From the NCBI RefSeq assembly GCF_001592735.1, contig NZ_LUKE01000003.1, forward strand, positions 124,001 through 188,000: a DNA stretch of 64,000 nucleotides, written 5' to 3'. This DNA is from Bdellovibrio bacteriovorus (GTDB taxonomy: Bacteria; Bdellovibrionota; Bdellovibrionia; Bdellovibrionales; Bdellovibrionaceae). Of the stretch, positions 10,849-28,421 are shown piece after piece; positions within the stretch are counted from its first letter, which is position 1, and each line of letters begins with the position of its first letter. The translations under genes and the position numbers were made by a program. The notes under the pieces were generated by a model. That model made no database searches, was not told the origin of the DNA, and saw only the letters and a list, made by a program, of their open reading frames with translations.

Positions 10849-12119
10849 TATGTATAGGTCACAAAGTTGCTAACAACGTTTTTGATAGGGAAGATCTGCT
10901 TTTTAGTCAGATCGTTAATGATGGTCGCTGAACGCCAAGCCATTAAGCTTGTTTGTGGTTCAGAAATTCCATGGCCATGACGGCTGAAGTTCAAGGCATA
11001 GATTTTATTTTTTTCTGATCCCGACCACGCGACATCAAAGTTTTTACTTAATTTAAAGCGACCTTCAGAATCAAAATCGATCTGCGGACGCAAAGGCTCA
11101 ATCAAAGCGGGGATATTTACACGGAACCCCGTGCTCAAGATAACGGTGTCAGCTTGAGCGATTTCGGTTTTATGCGTAAAGCCATTGCGGATGCGAAGAT
11201 CATAACGGCCCTCGGCCGCATTGATATCCACGACACGTCGGAATGGAAGAACTTGGATTTCACGTTTATCGCCATACACGTGCTTTAACTGATAAAGATC
11301 GCGGTATAACAGGTCCAAATACTCAGGCGTGTTTCCATCGCTGGCAAGTTTTTGGTACTTAACGATAGGATCTTTCATGCTTTGATCTAAGCCCAAGAAT
11401 TCTTCGACGTAAGAAGGGGCAAAGTATTCGTTCACAAAAGGGGAGTTGTCTAGCGGCTCTAAATTCGCACGGCTAGAAATAAGTTTTAAACTCTTTGGCG
11501 GACCCCATTTGCCTTGCAAGCAATTGCGGAAGATCTCTAAACCTGTTTGGCCACCACCGACAACAACGATGTCTTTGTTGGTGGCATCTAAAATTTTTAG
11601 ATAGCTCGATTTCGCATGAAATACTTCCGGACCTTCCACTTTTTCGGCAAAAAGAGGAATGTGTGGCACAATGCCAGTTCCAATACAGATATTATCTGCC
11701 GTGTAGGTTTCGCCGTTGACTTGCAAAATGAAATGCTTGCCGTCGTAATCCACCGACTGAATGTCGCAGCTGAACTTTAATTGGTCTTGCAAGTTTTCGC
11801 TGACCCATTGACAGTACATTTCAAATTCACGGCGTGAGATGGATTTGCGATTGGTGTTGATGAAAGAATAAAAAAGACCTTTTTGAACCAGATAGTTCAT
11901 AAAGCTGTAAGGATTGGTCGGATCCACCGGTGTCACCAAGTCTTTTAAAAATGAAGTCTGCATTTCCGAATCCGCAAAGCTGATTTCAGAATGCCAATCA
12001 AAGCGATGCTTGCGATCAAAGAAAAGACTGCGAACCCCCGGGGTTTTATCTAATAAAGCCGCCAAGCTCAGATTAAATAAACCAATGCCGATACCAATCA
12101 GGTTGTAGTGATTGTTCAT
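10848..12119 (-). CDS. iucD: L-lysine N6-monooxygenase, IucD-like
   Basis: A 423-residue flavoprotein of the IucD/SidA/PvdA family. It has the FAD site GIGIGLFNLS (residues 9-18), FLKDLVTPVDPTNPYSF typical of lysine/ornithine hydroxylases (58-74), the NADPH site VVVGGGQTGLE (186-196) and the C-terminal HGHGISEPQTSLMAWRS. It hydroxylates the side-chain amine of lysine, the first step of hydroxamate siderophore synthesis. It is closer to IucD than to the longer ornithine enzymes by length and by the absence of a C-terminal extension. ATGA overlap with the iucC stop upstream and TAATG with the receptor gene downstream. Confidence 0.92.
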   Translation of the reverse strand: MNNHYNLIGIGIGLFNLSLAALLDKTPGVRSLFFDRKHRFDWHSEISFADSEMQTSFLKDLVTPVDPTNPYSFMNYLVQKGLFYSFINTNRKSISRREFEMYCQWVSENLQDQLKFSCDIQSVDYDGKHFILQVNGETYTADNICIGTGIVPHIPLFAEKVEGPEVFHAKSSYLKILDATNKDIVVVGGGQTGLEIFRNCLQGKWGPPKSLKLISSRANLEPLDNSPFVNEYFAPSYVEEFLGLDQSMKDPIVKYQKLASDGNTPEYLDLLYRDLYQLKHVYGDKREIQVLPFRRVVDINAAEGRYDLRIRNGFTHKTEIAQADTVILSTGFRVNIPALIEPLRPQIDFDSEGRFKLSKNFDVAWSGSEKNKIYALNFSRHGHGISEPQTSLMAWRSATIINDLTKKQIFPIKNVVSNFVTYT

Positions 12120-13870
12120 AAAATCACCCCCGAATGGTTCAGGCTATAATAAATCGGATTCTTAAGATTTTCACCTAACATAGGAACAGGTCTTTCAGCA
12201 GAGTCGGCATAGCCAATCTTGAAACGAACTTTATTAACTAAGACGCGCAAAAGTTCCGGAGCAAGAATATTGATATCATTGAAATGAGGAAGCTTTGCCA
12301 CGTGAGGATGCTCCTCTAGATAATTTTTTAACTCTGTTCCCAAGATCGCGTAAAATACCTCTTCCGAAAGTCCGTCACACTCTTTTAAGGTTTCAGAGAT
12401 AAAGCGCAAAACCGTCACAAAGTGACCCGTCACTAAATCATGGATCAAATAGTTCGCCGGCAAGCGAGTCAGATCATGAGAAAGCGCAGTGGAAGTGGTC
12501 GTCATTCGTAAATCACCTTGGAAGTCTTTAAGTAACAAGCCCGTAGGCACCAAACCTTTTAATCGAATGACGACATTCTGTCCATGAGCCACGAGTCCCA
12601 GGCCGTATTGAGCTTGTAAATGATAAAGGGGAAGGACGACATTTCTGAAATAGGCTCGCAACCATTCTTTTTGGCTTAATCCCGACTGACGGATGTAAGC
12701 GCCGATCAGGGAGTTTCCTTGGGCATCGCGGTGAAAAAGGCTGCCGGCAATGATCGCTAATTCCCCGGGGTGGAGCTTTGAAGCCGAACTTTGGCGCCAT
12801 AAAACCCCTAAAAGCTCCTGATAACGATAAGGAGCACCCGCAACCTGGGAATAAAGATGGTGTTTGACGGAAACTCCGGCTTTTTCTTCTAAAACTTCGG
12901 TGCTCGCTAAATCCGCATCTTGACGGCACAGCCGGGTTAAATCGGCCGAGAGGGAAGGGCCTTGAGCCATGTATTTACCTGGAATCCCACGAATGGCCGA
13001 AGTGTTTAGAATGGTCAAAGGCAGCTTGATATCCATTTTTTCAGGACGTGCGATGTTTGAAAAAGTACGTAAAGAAATCTGCGGTAAATAAAGATCGCCG
13101 TAAGCGCCAAGAAAATGCAACTTTCCTGAAGCTAAATCTGCCGCAAACTGAATTTTTAAATATCTTTGCCATTGCCAAGGATGAACTGGGATAAAGAAGT
13201 AATCTTGATCATAAAGTTCACGTCGAGCCGTTTCGGCTTTAAATTCTTTAAAGACTTGGTCACTAAAGCTTTCGCGCAAAATATCATCAAAGCTTAAATC
13301 TGCCGCGATTCCTGAAAGACATAATGACTTGTGGGCCGCGAGCCACAAAAACTGCACGGGATTTTCTTTTTCCGGGCCATAAAGATCTTGATCGGCGGCA
13401 CTCCAACCGATGCGACCTTTGTTTAATAATAACTTGGGATGGCCTTTTAATACACTCTGGATCTTTTCACCGGGCCATGCGGTCATTTCTTCAGCGGTGA
13501 CTGTTAAAGATCTCTCTAGGACCGCTTGATCGGCATAAAGAGTGTTGTGCATTTCTTCTAAAAAGTTAGCCAGGATAATATCATCCATCCCGGTTTCTTT
13601 TTGGATATCGATAAAAAACTGTCCGGCACTGGTGGGTACTTCGCCATTACGGCGAATGCTTGAAATTTGAACTTTTAAATCCGTCCAAATCCCGGTCCAA
13701 GCCTGAAACTGATATGAAACACCACTAGCTAATGAAAGCTCATAAGGTGCTAACTGGTCTGCTGAACCCGATAAACGACGCGCGACCAGCACTTGCTCAT
13801 AGCTAAGCTCTTGCAGGCTTTTTGCGATCATTTCGATATTCAGTTTTTGCCAATCAGCGCGGAAGCTCAT
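12116..13870 (-). CDS. iucC: IucA/IucC family NIS siderophore synthetase, IucC-like
   Basis: A 584-residue NRPS-independent siderophore (NIS) synthetase. Motifs include GHPKLLLNKGRIGWS (about residues 143-157, where family members carry the ATP-binding GHPxxxxxKxRxG), VHPWQWQ (229-235), TSAIRGIPGKYM, and a C-terminal half with GLVAHGQNVVIRL and KDFQGDLRM. It uses ATP to form an amide between a carboxylate of citrate and N6-acetyl-N6-hydroxylysine. By operon position, after iucB and before iucD, it corresponds to IucC, which adds the second arm. ATGA overlap on both sides. Confidence 0.9.
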   Translation of the reverse strand: MSFRADWQKLNIEMIAKSLQELSYEQVLVARRLSGSADQLAPYELSLASGVSYQFQAWTGIWTDLKVQISSIRRNGEVPTSAGQFFIDIQKETGMDDIILANFLEEMHNTLYADQAVLERSLTVTAEEMTAWPGEKIQSVLKGHPKLLLNKGRIGWSAADQDLYGPEKENPVQFLWLAAHKSLCLSGIAADLSFDDILRESFSDQVFKEFKAETARRELYDQDYFFIPVHPWQWQRYLKIQFAADLASGKLHFLGAYGDLYLPQISLRTFSNIARPEKMDIKLPLTILNTSAIRGIPGKYMAQGPSLSADLTRLCRQDADLASTEVLEEKAGVSVKHHLYSQVAGAPYRYQELLGVLWRQSSASKLHPGELAIIAGSLFHRDAQGNSLIGAYIRQSGLSQKEWLRAYFRNVVLPLYHLQAQYGLGLVAHGQNVVIRLKGLVPTGLLLKDFQGDLRMTTTSTALSHDLTRLPANYLIHDLVTGHFVTVLRFISETLKECDGLSEEVFYAILGTELKNYLEEHPHVAKLPHFNDINILAPELLRVLVNKVRFKIGYADSAERPVPMLGENLKNPIYYSLNHSGVIL

Positions 13871-14856
13871 AGAAAATTGCCACCAAAGAAAGCTTCACGA
13901 CGGCATTCCAATAAGGCGGCGCGTTTGTGAGGGAAATCAAATTCTTTTAATTTTTTCCAAGCCGTGAAGGTCTCCACATAACGAAGAACTTTGGCGTTAT
14001 CCGAACGGGGCTCGGCCATGATTTTGCGCGTGCGCGGTTCTTCTAAAAACAAATAATGAGTGACCGACTTTAAAATCGCGTCCGTGTTGGCAAAGCCTAA
14101 GAACTTTTCATTGCCGATGAGGAAATGCAAACCACGGTCGAAGGCTTCAGAATCATAATAAGGACCTAAGCGATCTTCCTTGGTCCAATACATTTCAAAA
14201 TAACCGACCGACGTTTCATCAAATTCCACGATCACCGGGAATTGATGGGGATCTTCTAAGCCCTTTTTTAGATATTCACGCAGTTCTTCTTTGGGTTTAT
14301 TCAATTCCCAAAAATCAAAAACGCGGGGTTGATTGTGCCAGTCATGGAAGATATCCAAATCTTTTTCGATGTCCGCAACTCTTAAACGCAGAGTTTTACC
14401 CAAATGAGTTAAACTTCTTTGGTAAAGGATCTGACCCGGTTTTACGCGAGGACGCACGGGGTGAGAAACTTCTTTAGTAAGGGTCCAAGTTTCGGGTGTG
14501 ATGTTTTCTTTTCCGTTATGCACCCAAAGCGGGCGCAATTGGAAGAACTCTTGGCGAGTCACTTCTAAGGGAGTTCCCGATTTGCCTAAAAGCCGTGAAA
14601 ATCCCGCCGGCACTTTATTGAGCCACAGACTTTGGAGGGAGGAATTTTGCACAAACAAAGCTTCCAAGACCGCTAAGGTCATCACGTCGCAAGCATCAGC
14701 CTGGATGTTTACAAAAAGCTTATCGGCCTCCGTGAAGGTGTCAAAAAGGAGAGCCTCTTTCGGGGAACGCACTTGCCCGCTATGACCCGCAATTTGCACG
14801 GTCAAAGCTTCTTGAGTGGAGCAAGCATAAGTTGAAAAAAGAAAGGTAGTACTCAT
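13867..14856 (-). CDS. iucB: N6-hydroxylysine acetyltransferase, IucB-like
   Basis: A 329-residue protein with the C-terminal GNAT domain of the IucB/RhbD/siderophore-acetyltransferase type: HNQPRVFDFWEL, EELREYL, DPHQFPVIVEFD, GYFEMYWTKEDRLGPYYD, FDRGLHFLIG and HYLFLEEPRTRKIMAEPR in the usual order. It transfers acetyl from acetyl-CoA to N6-hydroxylysine. The N-terminal 120 residues are less conserved, as in IucB. It overlaps iucA and iucC by ATGA junctions. Confidence 0.92.
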   Translation of the reverse strand: MSTTFLFSTYACSTQEALTVQIAGHSGQVRSPKEALLFDTFTEADKLFVNIQADACDVMTLAVLEALFVQNSSLQSLWLNKVPAGFSRLLGKSGTPLEVTRQEFFQLRPLWVHNGKENITPETWTLTKEVSHPVRPRVKPGQILYQRSLTHLGKTLRLRVADIEKDLDIFHDWHNQPRVFDFWELNKPKEELREYLKKGLEDPHQFPVIVEFDETSVGYFEMYWTKEDRLGPYYDSEAFDRGLHFLIGNEKFLGFANTDAILKSVTHYLFLEEPRTRKIMAEPRSDNAKVLRYVETFTAWKKLKEFDFPHKRAALLECRREAFFGGNFL

Positions 14857-24300: not shown

Positions 24301-24474
24301 TGCAAACGGAGGACCATCATAAAAACTGTAAGTCGGTTTTGATGAATCCAAAGTTTGCGCGAAAATGTTCTGCTGATCCCAGAAATCAAGAATGCCTTCT
24401 TCTTGCTTTGCAAGTTGGACATCGGGTTTTACGGCAGAATAGGGGGCTTTTCGAGTGGTAGGTGCATTTGTCAT
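21301..24474 (-). CDS. ileS: Isoleucine--tRNA ligase, type 2 (long form)
   Basis: A 1057-residue class I synthetase. The HIGH signature appears as HYGH (residues 63-66) in LPHYGHLLAG, the KMSKS loop is at 603-607, and WDCHGLPVEYEI is characteristic of IleRS. The length and C-terminal region, which lacks the terminal CxxC zinc finger of E. coli-type enzymes, place it in the eukaryote-like type 2 group (IleS2), known from other organisms to tolerate mupirocin. It charges tRNA-Ile; the CP1 editing domain is present between the motifs. No clear Shine-Dalgarno precedes the ATG at 24474. Confidence 0.95.
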   Translation of the reverse strand: MTNAPTTRKAPYSAVKPDVQLAKQEEGILDFWDQQNIFAQTLDSSKPTYSFYDGPPFATGLPHYGHLLAGVLKDVVPRYWTMKGYRVPRRFGWDCHGLPVEYEINKTHKIESRKDVFKMGVAEYNSACRGIVKRYSEDWKKTVRRVGRWVDMENPYFTMDTEFMQSVWWVFQQLFQKGLIYEGYKVVPYSVGISTSLSNFEANSNYKMVQDPALTVMFPLINQANTFVMAWTTTPWTLPSNLALAVGKDIDYVKVKEHSSEKNFIVAQALMASVWKDPAKEVEVLQMMKGQDLLNLTYEPLFPYFADRADQGAFRIILADHVTTDSGTGIVHMAPAFGEEDYLACSKYHIPLVNPVDDDGMFTAEVPDYKGRRVKDADKDIIADLKKKGRVFKQDTIQHSYPFCYRSDTPLIYRAVSSWFVSVEKIKEQLIAANKTTTWVPDHLRDGRFGNWLENARDWAISRNRFWGTPLPLWRNAEGEVICIGSKEELEKLSGKKVDDLHIEFVDKITIPSPTGKSDLKRIEGVLDCWFESGSMPYAQWGYPKTNVEEFKKAFPADFIAEGLDQTRGWFYTLMVIGTALFGKAPFKNVVVNGLVLAEDGRKMSKSLKNYPDPMEVLNQHGADALRLYLIDSPVVKAQELKFSEKGVYDVVRKILLRWWNSYSFFANYANIDGFVPKGDAKNSPNILDQWVLSRLNGLIANTQKEMDAYRLYNVVPHLLQFIEDLTNTYIRFNRSHFWQDGMPEEKRLAYETLHEVLVTLSKLMAPFAPFMAEVTYKNLAQVLPNKKESVHLESFPEADLKMLRPELEEAVQAMDVLVQLGRMHREKIAVKAKIPLREIKIIHRNAKVLETLKKFEPYFVDELNFQKVIYDNNEDHYVQVSAKANFPVLGKRLGPKMKTVGAGIQKLDLASILKLESGAAVTVDGEEITLSDVEIRRAPKGDNKNLAVHQVVSIEVDPTVTPEQEQEGLAREIMRKIQVARKTADFQMDDKIRLEIACDGALLAALNAHKNMLVTETLTADLHILPLTGAPKGHHVDEGDIDGEAIKIGVTALPRA

Positions 24475-24496
24475 AGCTTGTGAAAGTACCAGATTT

Positions 24497-24552
24497 CCCT
24501 GCCATATGCATCATCTGGCAGGGTTGACAAAGCCATTGCTGGACCGCATCAT
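24497..24552 (+). promoter_or_regulatory. Promoter with operator-like inverted repeat (possible leaderless start)
   Basis: TTGACA (24524-24529) is an exact -35 hexamer, followed after 17 bases by CATCAT (24547-24552; 4 of 6 to TATAAT). The expected transcript start falls at or next to the A of the ATG at 24560. The inverted repeat CCCTGCCA/TGGCAGGG (24497-24504 and 24516-24523) directly abuts the -35 box and could be an operator. The lack of a Shine-Dalgarno before 24560 agrees with a leaderless message. Confidence 0.4.
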
Positions 24553-24559
24553 CTGCCTT

Positions 24560-25516
24560 ATGCAAAAGTTATTTATCAGCTATCCCGCTCCACCGAATGT
24601 TATTAAGAAAGCTCAAGGGCTTTTTATCACGACAGCCGCTGAAAAAGCCGTGAAGGCCGAAGAGATTTTAGCTTATGCCCTTCAATACGATCCAGACGCG
24701 ATCTTGGTCTCTCACCAAAAGAGAATAAGCGCCGAGATTATTTCAAAACTGCCAAAATCCGTAAAAATCATTGCGACTTCCAGTGTGGGATTTGACCACA
24801 TTGATATCCAAGCCGCAAAAGCGAAGGGGATTGAAGTGACAAATACTCCCGATGTCCTGACGGACTGCACGGCCGATCTTGCCATGATGTTACTCATGAA
24901 TGCCTGTCGTCGGGGCCGAGAATATCTCGAGATCATGCAAGAAGGCTGGGGGAAAAGTTATTCACAAAGTGAAATGCTGGGACTTAAGGTGAGCGGCAAG
25001 ACTTTGGGGATTTTAGGTATGGGGCGCATTGGTCAGGCCCTTGCTGACAGGGCCCGGGGTTTTGGGATGAAGATTCTTTACACCAATCGCACAAGACTCA
25101 GTCCCGAATTAGAAAAGGGTGCGGTGTATTTTTCAGATTTTAAGGAAATGCTTCCCCTGTGCGAGATTCTTTCTTTGAACGCGCCGGTGACCGATGAAAC
25201 TAAGAACATTATGAACGATGAGACCTTTGGACTTTTACCTCAAGACGCGGTTTTTGTGAATGCCGCGCGTGGAGGCTTGGTGGACGAGTCCGCCCTGATT
25301 CGCGCTTTAGAATCAGGCCGTCTTTTTGCGGCGGGTTTAGATGTTTTTCAGGATGAACCTAACTACAACCAAGATCTTTTGAAATTTCATAATGTGTTTT
25401 TAACTCCGCATATGGGAAGTGCCACGCGGGAAACCCGCGATGCGATGGGTTTTCGGGCCCTTGCTAATATCGAAGCTGTTTTAAGAGGAGAAAAACCGCA
25501 GGATTCGCTTTGGTAA
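24560..25516 (+). CDS. D-2-hydroxyacid dehydrogenase family protein
   Basis: A 318-residue NAD(P)-dependent 2-hydroxyacid dehydrogenase. The ATG at 24560 is preferred because alignment-like features begin there (MQKLFISYPAPPNV); the ORF extension to 24455 lies in the ileS promoter. It has the Rossmann motif LGILGMGRIGQALA, AARGGLVDESAL with the substrate Arg, the catalytic Glu in FQDEP and the catalytic His in LTPHMGSAT. It most resembles glyoxylate/hydroxypyruvate reductases. It reduces 2-oxoacids to D-hydroxyacids or the reverse; substrate undetermined. It is transcribed divergently from ileS. Confidence 0.9.
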   Translation: MQKLFISYPAPPNVIKKAQGLFITTAAEKAVKAEEILAYALQYDPDAILVSHQKRISAEIISKLPKSVKIIATSSVGFDHIDIQAAKAKGIEVTNTPDVLTDCTADLAMMLLMNACRRGREYLEIMQEGWGKSYSQSEMLGLKVSGKTLGILGMGRIGQALADRARGFGMKILYTNRTRLSPELEKGAVYFSDFKEMLPLCEILSLNAPVTDETKNIMNDETFGLLPQDAVFVNAARGGLVDESALIRALESGRLFAAGLDVFQDEPNYNQDLLKFHNVFLTPHMGSATRETRDAMGFRALANIEAVLRGEKPQDSLW

Positions 25517-25636: not shown

Positions 25637-25804
25637 ATGAAATTTAGAGCAATACGTAAATACTATACTCATTTCATCACACTCCTGTCGCTCTCAGGTT
25701 TTATGCTGCTGTGTTTTTCTAACTGCCAACAGATTCAACTGATCCCTGTCGAAATTGAAAATCATCAAGTGATCACCATTGATCAGACGTCTGTCTCAAA
25801 TTGA
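25637..25804 (+). CDS. Small hydrophobic or lipoprotein-like peptide
   Basis: A 55-residue reading from ATG 25637 (a longer start at 25589 has no better support). It has one hydrophobic segment (FITLLSLSGFMLLCF) ending FSNC, a weak lipobox, then about 30 polar residues. It stands 31 bases before the secreted amidoligase-like gene and may be its operon partner. The Shine-Dalgarno is unclear; a real but unassigned small protein is possible, or a non-translated reading. Confidence 0.35.
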   Translation: MKFRAIRKYYTHFITLLSLSGFMLLCFSNCQQIQLIPVEIENHQVITIDQTSVSN

Positions 25805-25835: not shown

Positions 25836-27248
25836 GTGAAGAAAAATCGCGGTTCATATCCATTTAAACTCCCGCTACTGATCAGCTTTTTAACGGCTGT
25901 CGTCGTAATTGCGTCGGGCGCTTGGGCTCAGGCCCAAATGCAAATTGGTGGGGAGTTTGAATTCGTGGATTTTTCAGTTCCGGTGGTCTTAGGCAGTGGC
26001 CTGAAGGGTCATGAAGAAGCCATGGCCGATCGCATGGTGAAAGCCATTCAAGAAATCTGCCCACCCCCACAATGTCAAGAAACGCGCGTGGAAGGAAAGT
26101 TTGGACAAGAAAGCCGCTTCCAATTGGAAAATGGTTTTTGGTTTCAAATAAGTTGGGACCCGAATGTCGTGGAAGTCACCACAAAACCATCAACCGTGGC
26201 CGAAGTGCGTGCGATGGCCCCTGTTTTACAGAAGCTGATTTGGGGAAGTGCCAAGCTTGCCGGGCTAAGTCCTGATCCCGAACGGCGCGCGGGACATTTT
26301 AATTTTGGCGCGATGAAAAGTTTTGATGGCAATGCGCTAGAGTTTTTAAAATTTATAATTGATTATGCCAATCGCCCGGAACTGGCTAACGGCATTTTTC
26401 GCGATACCAACAGTTTAAACGCGCCTCATTTAGCCCAGCTCGGTGAAGAGCAGCGCCGCGCTTTAAGTGATCTTGCGGCTAAGGCATTAACAAAGCCCCA
26501 AGAAGAAAAAATGACATTAGCCAATTTATTTTCGAAACCCCGAAAGCATCCCACGCAAATGACGATCGCGGAAATGGCTTACGACCTTGTCCGCCATGTA
26601 TTTTATGAAACCACAAATCCGATGTATTCCGGCCCCGAAGCTTGGCACTATCAAGCCTTGGGACTAAAAAGTGTGTTAATGATTCGACCCGATAGTGATC
26701 GTCCTTTAGAAAACCGCGCCGTGCGATCGCAACGGGATATCTATGATTTTATTTTAATGGCCGAGCTGATGGAAGCGCGTATTGCTTACTTAAAGACCTT
26801 ACCTAAAGAAACCGCATTTACCGTGACAGAAACAACCAAAGGAAAATTCACCGCGCAAGAACTTGTGAACCGCTATTACATCTATGTGACCGAAACAGGG
26901 CTTTCGTGGGATGTATATAAGCGTCTCTTGCCGGCAAAGTTATTGATCCGTAAGCCGCATCCATTATTAATGGTCGTTGCCGCTCCGTCAGAAAAATCAA
27001 AGAGCGTTAAAGAGATCGTGGAGGTTTTAGATCTTTTAGCGACCAGCCCATGGTTGCAAAAAAAAGTGCAAGAGATTTTGCTTAATGAGCAAATTCCTTA
27101 CGAGCAACGAGAACTTTTGCTTCATGAAATCAAACGTCTAGAAGTAAGCACGGATTACTCGCACGAGATGCGGAGGCGTTTAAAGCAGCTCGATTTTGCC
27201 GTCATCCCCGGCGGTGGCAGCATGTCTTGCCGAGCGCTCTTTTTATAA
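25836..27248 (+). CDS. Secreted protein with amidoligase-like (COOH-NH2 ligase) motifs
   Basis: A 470-residue protein from GTG 25836. An N-terminal hydrophobic segment ending AWAQA (about residue 33) reads as a signal peptide. After it come GGEFEF (residues 38-43, E40/E42), VVEVTTKPS (112-120), GHFNFG (154-159, H155 and N157) and later LENRAVRSQRD. The order ExE, ExxxxP, HxN, ExR matches the glutamine-synthetase-fold amidoligases (Amidoligase_2). Those enzymes use ATP, so a periplasmic location would be odd; the protein may be a catalytically altered relative. No strong Shine-Dalgarno. Function is a motif-based inference. Confidence 0.6.
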   Translation: MKKNRGSYPFKLPLLISFLTAVVVIASGAWAQAQMQIGGEFEFVDFSVPVVLGSGLKGHEEAMADRMVKAIQEICPPPQCQETRVEGKFGQESRFQLENGFWFQISWDPNVVEVTTKPSTVAEVRAMAPVLQKLIWGSAKLAGLSPDPERRAGHFNFGAMKSFDGNALEFLKFIIDYANRPELANGIFRDTNSLNAPHLAQLGEEQRRALSDLAAKALTKPQEEKMTLANLFSKPRKHPTQMTIAEMAYDLVRHVFYETTNPMYSGPEAWHYQALGLKSVLMIRPDSDRPLENRAVRSQRDIYDFILMAELMEARIAYLKTLPKETAFTVTETTKGKFTAQELVNRYYIYVTETGLSWDVYKRLLPAKLLIRKPHPLLMVVAAPSEKSKSVKEIVEVLDLLATSPWLQKKVQEILLNEQIPYEQRELLLHEIKRLEVSTDYSHEMRRRLKQLDFAVIPGGGSMSCRALFL

Positions 27249-27575: not shown

Positions 27576-28382
27576 TTAAAACTTATACGTCACAGAAAGG
27601 TAATGACCAAATCCTGTGGTCTCTCCGGCAATGCCGCCGTCTTTTAACAGCGCCATGTCTTTATAGTACTTTAAGCCGTAACCCAAAGCATAGCGTTGAG
27701 TGTGCCAGTAAAGACCGTTGAACCATTCTAAAGAATCTTCAGAGTAGTTCGTCGAATCAGAAATTTGTGTCGCACCAAATTTATAATCTAAATAACCTTG
27801 ATAAGTCAGATTGCCGCCGATTTCCCAAAAAGGTCTAAACCAGTTTGTTGAAATGATGTATCCATCCCAACGTTTTTCGTTTGGATTGGTGTAATTTTCA
27901 CGAACATAGCGAGCCATCAAATTTGCACCCACGCGGCCCAGCCACGGAACTTGGATGTCAGAACCAAGACCGATGTATTGTTCAAACAAAGATTGATCAC
28001 CGACGTTCATCAAACCTGAGATGTAAACTTCAGAAACAAAACCTTGGTATTTTTCGTGCCCCAACATCGCGTTGATTGAAACGCGCGGAGCAAATTTAAA
28101 GAAAAAATTATCTTTGCCGTGGCGATCGCTGTCGGGGCTGTCAAAGATATCAAAAACATCTAGATAGCCGTAAAGATCAAAGATCCCTGAACGGCCTCCG
28201 AATTCCATTTCCAAGTAAGTATCGTCTTGGTTTTGGAAAGGAATTTTATTGTCGATACTTTGCATGATATTGAACTGAAACCATTTAAAGTCGTTCTTAT
28301 GCAGATCCGAACTTGGGTTGTCTTGAGCAAAGGACAATGTTGAAGAAAGCAACACGAACAAAAGGCTTAATTTAAATTTCAT
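27576..28382 (-). CDS. tsx: Tsx-like nucleoside-specific outer-membrane channel
   Basis: A 268-residue outer-membrane protein starting at ATG 28382, where GGAGA stands upstream. The signal peptide is MKFKLSLLFVLLSSTLSFA. The mature part shows the Tsx pattern DDTYLEMEFGGRSGIFDLYGYLDV, FFKFAPRVSIN, YIGLGSDIQ, ARYVRENYTNPNEKRWDGY and a C-terminal FGHYLSVTYKF with a terminal Phe. Tsx forms a 12-stranded barrel that admits nucleosides. In a predator this could serve uptake of nucleosides from prey DNA, which is inference. Length equals the E. coli protein (about 270 mature). Confidence 0.9.
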   Translation of the reverse strand: MKFKLSLLFVLLSSTLSFAQDNPSSDLHKNDFKWFQFNIMQSIDNKIPFQNQDDTYLEMEFGGRSGIFDLYGYLDVFDIFDSPDSDRHGKDNFFFKFAPRVSINAMLGHEKYQGFVSEVYISGLMNVGDQSLFEQYIGLGSDIQVPWLGRVGANLMARYVRENYTNPNEKRWDGYIISTNWFRPFWEIGGNLTYQGYLDYKFGATQISDSTNYSEDSLEWFNGLYWHTQRYALGYGLKYYKDMALLKDGGIAGETTGFGHYLSVTYKF

Positions 28383-28421
28383 TTTGTGGTCTCCGGCTGG
28401 AGCCACTAGCTAGCAAAAACG

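What the first reader, a model, noticed from the sequence alone, without database searches (positions are those of the whole stretch)
25836..27248. Secreted protein with amidoligase-like motif set
GGEFEF, VEVTTKP, GHFNFG and ENR occur in the order typical of glutamine-synthetase-fold COOH-NH2 ligases, yet the protein has a signal-peptide-like N-terminus. An ATP-dependent amide ligase outside the cytoplasm would be very unusual. It may modify peptidoglycan peptides, be a non-ATP derivative, or have a wrongly assigned start.
Basis: partly seen in the sequence, partly recalled or inferred. Interest (0 to 1): 0.6.

Follow-up and report, generated by a model that had tools for sequence, protein, structure and literature searches.

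The report
Exported glutamine-synthetase-fold ligase in Bdellovibrionota
A predatory-bacterium lineage makes and exports an unannotated enzyme family shaped like ATP-driven peptide-bond makers, with the catalytic residues kept and a short cysteine tag that it shares with other exported ATP-using enzymes, which suggests (but does not prove) that these enzymes work inside prey cells.

Summary
The ORF 25836-27248 (+, 470 aa) carries the motif set in the stated order behind a signal peptide. Two AlphaFold2 models match only glutamine-synthetase-superfamily structures among the best rows (plant glutamate-cysteine ligase Z 12.3, YbdK, Dop, GS, PafA). A wrong start is very unlikely: relatives occur in 64 of 369 phylum genomes (44 genera), and those read carry a signal peptide or lipobox. 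The family has no Pfam or NCBIfam model and is not an Amidoligase_2 member by HMM (profile comparison about 2%). Residues E113, H154, D176, E292 and R294 are invariant in 34 relatives, so it looks like a working enzyme.

New here: a terminal tag C-x-x-[VIL]-F (here ..SMSCRALFL) on a disordered tail. It ends 10 of 634 exported and 0 of 1207 other sampled proteins. In this genome the tagged proteins are mostly ATP-, NAD- or chaperone-linked: GS-fold, Amidoligase_2, ATP-grasp, Fic, SelO, DnaJ. Best reading: an exported ATP-dependent amide ligase that works where ATP exists, probably in prey. Delivery, substrate and activity are untested.

The parts
25836..27248 (+). Exported GS-fold protein, 470 aa, GTG start, stop included
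   Evidence: relatives
25836..25934 (+). Sec-type signal peptide, residues 1-33 (cleavage after AWA31 or AQA33, inferred)
   Evidence: sequence; same feature in relatives
25938..26954 (+). Glutamine-synthetase-fold catalytic domain, residues 35-373
   Evidence: AlphaFold2 models and structure comparison
25947..25964 (+). GGEFEF, residues 38-43; E40 kept in all relatives that have the position, E42 replaced by T/N/S in many
   Evidence: assignment to metal/ATP site is by analogy with GS E129/E131 (own knowledge)
26058..26075 (+). C75-x4-C80, present in nearly all relatives; probable disulfide
26157..26189 (+). DPNVVEVTTKP, residues 108-118; beta-hairpin with D108 and invariant E113
26295..26303 (+). 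H154-F-N156; H154 invariant
26709..26717 (+). E292-N-R294; E and R invariant (analogue of GS E357/R359, own knowledge)
27228..27242 (+). Terminal tag CRALF, residues 465-469, at the end of a disordered tail
   Evidence: pLDDT under 50 over 451-470; terminal conservation; statistics

Best explanation
The gene encodes an exported, catalytically competent GS-superfamily ligase. Shown: signal peptide (by sequence and conservation), GS fold (by prediction), conserved active-site-type residues, conserved Cys-containing terminal tag. Inferred: after Sec export the protein is sent on to a compartment that holds ATP and Mg2+, most likely the prey cell during predation. There it phosphorylates a carboxylate (a Glu/Asp side chain, a C-terminus or a small acid) and joins it to an amine, modifying a prey protein or metabolite. 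The terminal C-x-x-[VIL]-F tag is a sorting or anchoring signal shared with other exported ATP-, NAD- or chaperone-linked enzymes of these bacteria.
For: Fold: all 50 listed structural matches for both models are GS superfamily (best Z 12.3, 258-268 residues aligned). Catalysis: E113, H154, D176, E292, R294 invariant and E40 kept in 34 deeply divergent relatives. Export: signal peptides or lipoboxes across the phylum. Tag: 10/634 exported versus 0/1207 other proteins, against 0.16 expected from the motif's density elsewhere in the same exported proteins. Three relatives that lack the CxxxxC pair (L159, L164, L024) still have the terminal Cys, so it is probably not that pair's partner; relatives L026 and L022 carry the tag behind the signal peptide instead of at the end. 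Company: tagged proteins of this genome include Amidoligase_2 and ATP-grasp, Fic and DnaJ and SelO. Precedent: the actin-crosslinking domain.
Against: No activity, substrate, localisation or delivery route is known. The family is absent from the 23 other genomes searched in the same genus, so it is not a core predation factor. The tag also occurs on an M23 peptidase and an alpha/beta hydrolase, which need no ATP. E42, the second Glu of the first motif, is replaced in many relatives. The tag's motif was defined on part of the data, and signal peptides were called by a simple rule. The independent stretch gave one hit in 129 exported proteins.
Confidence: 0.42

Rival explanations
1. It is an enzyme of the predator's own envelope that uses the GS-fold site without net ATP turnover, for example as an amide hydrolase or transferase in the manner of Dop, acting on peptidoglycan peptides or exported peptides.
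For: Dop, a GS-fold deamidase/depupylase, is among the closest structures (Z 11.5). Lipoprotein-type relatives (L203-L205, L207) suggest an envelope location in other classes. E42 is variable, so the metal site may differ from true ligases.
Against: Dop still needs a bound nucleotide, which a periplasm does not supply (own knowledge). The invariant residues are the same ones that ligases use. The co-tagged ATP-grasp, Fic, SelO and DnaJ proteins would be hard to explain in a nucleotide-free place.
Confidence: 0.27
2. It is a pseudoenzyme or binding protein that kept the fold and uses the cleft to bind a peptide or ligand.
For: A periplasm lacks ATP; E42 is lost in many members.
Against: The catalytic-type residues are the most conserved positions in a family with about 20% mean column identity, the opposite of what decay gives.
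Confidence: 0.13
3. The start is misassigned and the enzyme is cytosolic.
For: GTG start without an obvious ribosome-binding site.
Against: Differing but equally hydrophobic signal peptides in relatives of many genera, and lipoboxes in others. The only alternative start, M35, sits three residues before the first GS-fold motif.
Confidence: 0.03
4. The terminal Cys motif is only a structural element (a last strand or a disulfide of the fold), not a sorting tag. This concerns the tag only and can be combined with the other explanations.
For: It is conserved in the GS-fold family itself, and C75/C80 are conserved Cys residues.
Against: It sits on a low-confidence tail of variable length, remains where C75/C80 are absent (L159, L164, L024), appears at the N-terminus in L026/L022, and occurs on proteins of unrelated folds.
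Confidence: 0.15

Closest known systems
GS-superfamily ligases: glutamate-cysteine ligase (2gwc), YbdK (1r8g), glutamine synthetase, PafA
   Same: Fold and order of the metal/ATP-site motifs
   Different: These are cytosolic or organellar (own knowledge); under 16% identity in the structural alignments; no signal peptide or terminal Cys tag
Pfam Amidoligase_2 (PF12224)
   Same: GxExE, E(I/V)xxxP, HxH/N, ExR motif order; some exported members in the same phylum also carry the terminal Cys tag
   Different: HMM does not match this family (profile-profile about 2%). One remote relative, L038, is reached by both models. The best-scoring PF12224 members of the phylum lack a signal peptide.
Actin-crosslinking domain of MARTX/VgrG toxins (PMC2908040, PMC3448709)
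   Same: GS-family ATP-dependent amide ligase that works outside the producer, in another cell's cytosol with that cell's ATP
   Different: Delivered by T1SS/T6SS as part of a larger toxin; eukaryotic target; no sequence relation was tested (name only)
R2K-clade ATP-grasp / CDC123 proteins proposed as secreted effectors (PMC4431377)
   Same: ATP-dependent peptide ligases proposed to be delivered in conflicts; R2K-like ATP-grasp proteins are paired or fused with exported Amidoligase_2 here
   Different: Different fold; the window gene has no such neighbour
MYXO-CTERM sorting tag (PMC11980579)
   Same: C-terminal tag with an invariant Cys on exported proteins
   Different: No transmembrane helix or Arg cluster follows the Cys here; the protein ends 0-5 residues after the motif, and some proteins carry it behind the signal peptide

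Membership tests
Glutamine-synthetase superfamily | GS-type catalytic fold | tested here: met
   Two AF2 models (pTM 0.77 and 0.83); all 50 best VIA rows GS superfamily, Z 9.7-12.3. Foldseek alone was marginal (best E 1.7e-3 with a GS-family enzyme; spermine synthase fragments first for the core model)
Glutamine-synthetase superfamily | Acidic/His/Arg residues of the metal-ATP site | tested here: met
   E40, E113, H154, E292, R294 conserved in relatives; E42 is not. Assignment to the metal sites is by motif order, not by superposition
Glutamine-synthetase superfamily | ATP-dependent amide or peptide ligation | not testable with these tools
   needs purified protein
Pfam Amidoligase_2 (PF12224) | Score above the curated cut-off (22 bits) | tested here: not met
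   no match for the window protein; 1 of 34 relatives matches, and that one is remote
Pfam Amidoligase_2 (PF12224) | Profile-profile similarity to family members | tested here: not met
   hhalign probability 0-2%, while divergent and canonical PF12224 members match each other at 99.8%
Sec-exported proteins | Cleavable signal peptide conserved in relatives | tested here: met
   no trained predictor available, judged by n-, h- and c-region
Delivered effector acting in prey | Presence in prey cytoplasm | not testable with these tools
   inferred only
MYXO-CTERM | Cys motif followed by transmembrane helix and Arg cluster at the C-terminus | tested here: not met
   tail is ..GGGSMSCRALFL-COOH

The most novel reading that the evidence does not exclude
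Bdellovibrionota carry a previously undescribed short sorting tag, C-x-x-[VIL]-F, at the very C-terminus or just behind the signal peptide. It sends a set of ATP-, NAD- and chaperone-dependent enzymes (GS-fold ligases, Amidoligase_2 with ATP-grasp, Fic, SelO, J-domain protein) through the periplasm into prey cytoplasm, and the window protein is one of them.
Probability: 0.22. Interest if true: 0.88.

Novelty: new variant of a known kind. Interest (0 to 1): 0.64.

Why it matters
A 2023 review lists how Bdellovibrio gains access to prey cytoplasmic contents as an open question (PMC10225642), and a 2025 paper calls secretion in B. bacteriovorus largely unexplored (PMC12622784). A tagged set of exported enzymes that need cytosolic cofactors gives named candidates and a five-residue element that can be tested directly. 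The family is also an unannotated branch of a well-studied ligase fold, present in 44 of 182 sampled genera of the phylum.

Tried and rejected
Single-sequence searches of Pfam, NCBIfam, the PDB, plasmids and phages found nothing; a first scan of genome contigs by single sequence found nothing. Amidoligase_2 membership was rejected. E42/N156 covariation looked like compensating metal-site change, but the tree shows it is essentially one clade split, so it is not counted as evidence. Recent insertion at the locus could not be judged: flanking genes are not neighbours in other species of the genus, and G+C is ordinary. No operon partner in the window; promoter and terminator scans are at chance level. 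The tag as a mark of prey-cytoplasm effectors only is weakened by a tagged M23 peptidase and alpha/beta hydrolase. Literature searches found no description of such a tag or of exported amidoligases in Bdellovibrio in the open-licence library held; the key 2009 amidoligase survey (Iyer et al.) is not held. Residue-by-residue superposition on GS could not be made (models are not readable in the script box).

Full report
WHAT IS THERE. The window lies in a Bdellovibrionaceae genome (G000, 3.93 Mb, contig C3; family name from named relatives; the genus is unnamed). ORF 25836-27248 (+) starts with GTG and encodes 470 residues. Neighbours are a 2-hydroxyacid-dehydrogenase-like gene upstream (24455-25516), a 55-residue lipoprotein-like ORF (25637-25804), and an outer-membrane-like gene downstream on the other strand (27576-28406, -); these names are by eye. 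There is no obvious operon partner.

THE START AND THE SIGNAL PEPTIDE. The N-terminus MKKNRGSYPFKLPLLISFLTAVVVIASGAWAQAQ has charged, hydrophobic and AxA regions. The only other nearby in-frame start is ATG at residue 35, three residues before the GGEFEF motif. A paralogue in the same genome (L003, 37% identity) and relatives in other genera have their own signal peptides; in other classes of the phylum several have lipoboxes (L203, L204, L205, L207). Export is therefore conserved while the segment's sequence drifts.

THE FOLD. No sequence search links the protein to a known family. AlphaFold2 with eight sequences gave pLDDT 75, pTM 0.77 for the whole protein and 80, 0.83 for the core. VIA-align comparison gave only GS-superfamily structures in the 50 rows shown: plant glutamate-cysteine ligase Z 12.3, YbdK 12.1, Dop 11.5, GS about 10.5, PafA 10.0, repeated with the core. 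Foldseek's own E-values are weak (1.7e-3 at best), so the conclusion rests on the Z-scores, on two models, and on the matching motif order.

THE RESIDUES. In 34 relatives from many genera (mean column identity 20%), E113, H154, D176, E292 and R294 are invariant; E40 is present in every row that has the position; D108 is replaced once. By order and secondary structure these correspond to the metal- and phosphate-binding residues of GS (E129, E212/E220, H269, E357, R359; own knowledge, not a superposition). E42, the second Glu, is replaced by T, N or S in about half of the relatives. The pattern E42/N156 versus T/N/S42/H156 follows essentially one deep split of the tree and is not independent evidence.

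DISTRIBUTION. The profile finds relatives in 15 of 66 genomes of the family, 22 of 141 of the order, 64 of 369 of the phylum (44 of 182 genera), but in none of 23 other genomes of the same genus. Presence is patchy. Other phyla were not searched thoroughly; the scan of 84,980 species genomes with one conserved peptide pattern returned only Bdellovibrio-like records.

THE AMIDOLIGASE_2 QUESTION. The family does not match PF12224, and profile-profile comparison gives 0-2% where true members give 99.8% with each other. One remote relative (L038/L166, G030) is reached by both PF12224 and the family profile. So it is a separate GS-fold family. The best-scoring PF12224 members of the phylum have no signal peptide, whereas several divergent ones do. 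In this same genome an Amidoligase_2 gene sits directly behind an ATP-grasp gene with overlapping stop and start; both products have signal peptides (L001/L049). In another species of the genus the two are fused in one exported protein (L034).

THE TERMINAL TAG. The last 20 residues are predicted disordered, yet end in C465-RALF-L. Of the 34 relatives in the alignment nearly all with a complete end have a Cys close to the C-terminus, mostly as C-x-x-hydrophobic-hydrophobic. L026 and L022 lack it there but have NRCSILL / NRCSLLL just behind the signal peptide. Three relatives without C75/C80 (L159, L164, L024) keep the terminal Cys, so it is unlikely to be the partner of that pair.

I then asked whether other proteins carry it. 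In samples from four genomes the strict motif C-x-x-[VIL]-F ends 10 of 634 exported proteins and 0 of 1207 others (Fisher P 2e-5); the motif's density elsewhere in the exported proteins predicts 0.16. Without the GS-fold proteins it is 5 observed, 0.16 expected (P 7e-7). Caveats: the motif was framed on part of this sample, some stretches were chosen because they held amidoligases, signal peptides were called by a simple rule, and one exported protein was reclassified by hand. In a fresh 400 kb of the same genome, 1 of 129 exported and 0 of 221 other proteins had it (P 0.03 by position; 0.37 by Fisher).

WHAT CARRIES THE TAG. In this genome, at the C-terminus: the two GS-fold paralogues, Amidoligase_2, a 1317-residue protein with a Fic domain (PF02661, 6e-8) and an ART-like N-terminal segment (by eye only), a J-domain protein (PF00226, 3e-15), and a SelO-like protein (PF02696, 4e-6; this is the out-of-sample hit). 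Behind the signal peptide: the ATP-grasp protein, its 748-residue neighbour with GS-like motifs, and an alpha/beta hydrolase. Elsewhere: transglutaminase-like, protein-glutaminase-like and M23 peptidase proteins. Among exported proteins of the G000 sample, each one with a Fic, J-domain or ATP-grasp signature was tagged (one protein each, so small numbers).

HOW IT PROBABLY WORKS. Shown: export signal, predicted GS fold, conserved site, tag. Inferred: the protein acts where ATP and Mg2+ are present. A periplasm has no ATP to speak of, but the prey compartment may; an ATP transport system of intracellular B. bacteriovorus was reported (Ruby and McCabe 1986, seen only as a citation in PMC4834554). 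The precedent for an exported GS-family ligase is the actin-crosslinking domain (PMC2908040, PMC3448709). The reaction would be phosphorylation of a carboxylate and attack by an amine. Substrate and delivery route are unknown.

VERDICT. Observation confirmed; interpretation right about fold and export, wrong about the named family; the tag and its company are the most interesting part and are worth a direct test.

Noticed in passing
L049:14590-15936 (-) and 13505-14614 (-), G000:C2 near 154 kb: Exported ATP-grasp gene overlapping an exported Amidoligase_2 gene, followed by a 748-residue exported protein (11249-13495) with GS-like motifs (GFESEY); all three carry the Cys tag.
   Followed up: partly
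L063:14922-18875 (-): Exported 1317-residue protein with a Fic domain and an N-terminal stretch resembling ADP-ribosyltransferases (YGPGVYMAES); C-terminal tag MCRNVFAI.
   Followed up: partly
L059:7301-8614 (-): Exported J-domain (DnaJ) protein with C-terminal tag KCSKVFAE.
   Followed up: partly
L250:7932-9737 (-); open frames of 610-680 aa in other genomes of the order: Divergent SelO-like (protein adenylyltransferase) protein, exported and tagged (GSCRSVFAG) in this genome; a divergent subgroup of similar length exists besides normal SelO. Termini of the others could not be read.
   Followed up: partly
L034:1351-3618 (+), G004; L185:1378-3630 (+), G337: Exported fusions of Amidoligase_2 with an R2K-like ATP-grasp domain.
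   Followed up: partly
L026:2475-3878 (+) and L022:92-1498 (-): Exported partner gene next to the GS-fold gene in two species, no Pfam match, with HGQN...RDYAD that resembles a kinase-like or SelO-like site; C-terminal SCRMLMSSI / SCKVLLAGA.
   Followed up: partly
L099:7817-11053 (+), G022: Exported 1078-residue protein with an Amidoligase_2-like domain, a second GS-like motif set and HEAT repeats; tail NSCQAVFQ.
   Followed up: no
window 25637-25804 (+): 55-residue lipoprotein-like ORF (MKFRAIRKYYTHFITLLSLSGFMLLCFSNCQQ...) just upstream of the finding.
   Followed up: no
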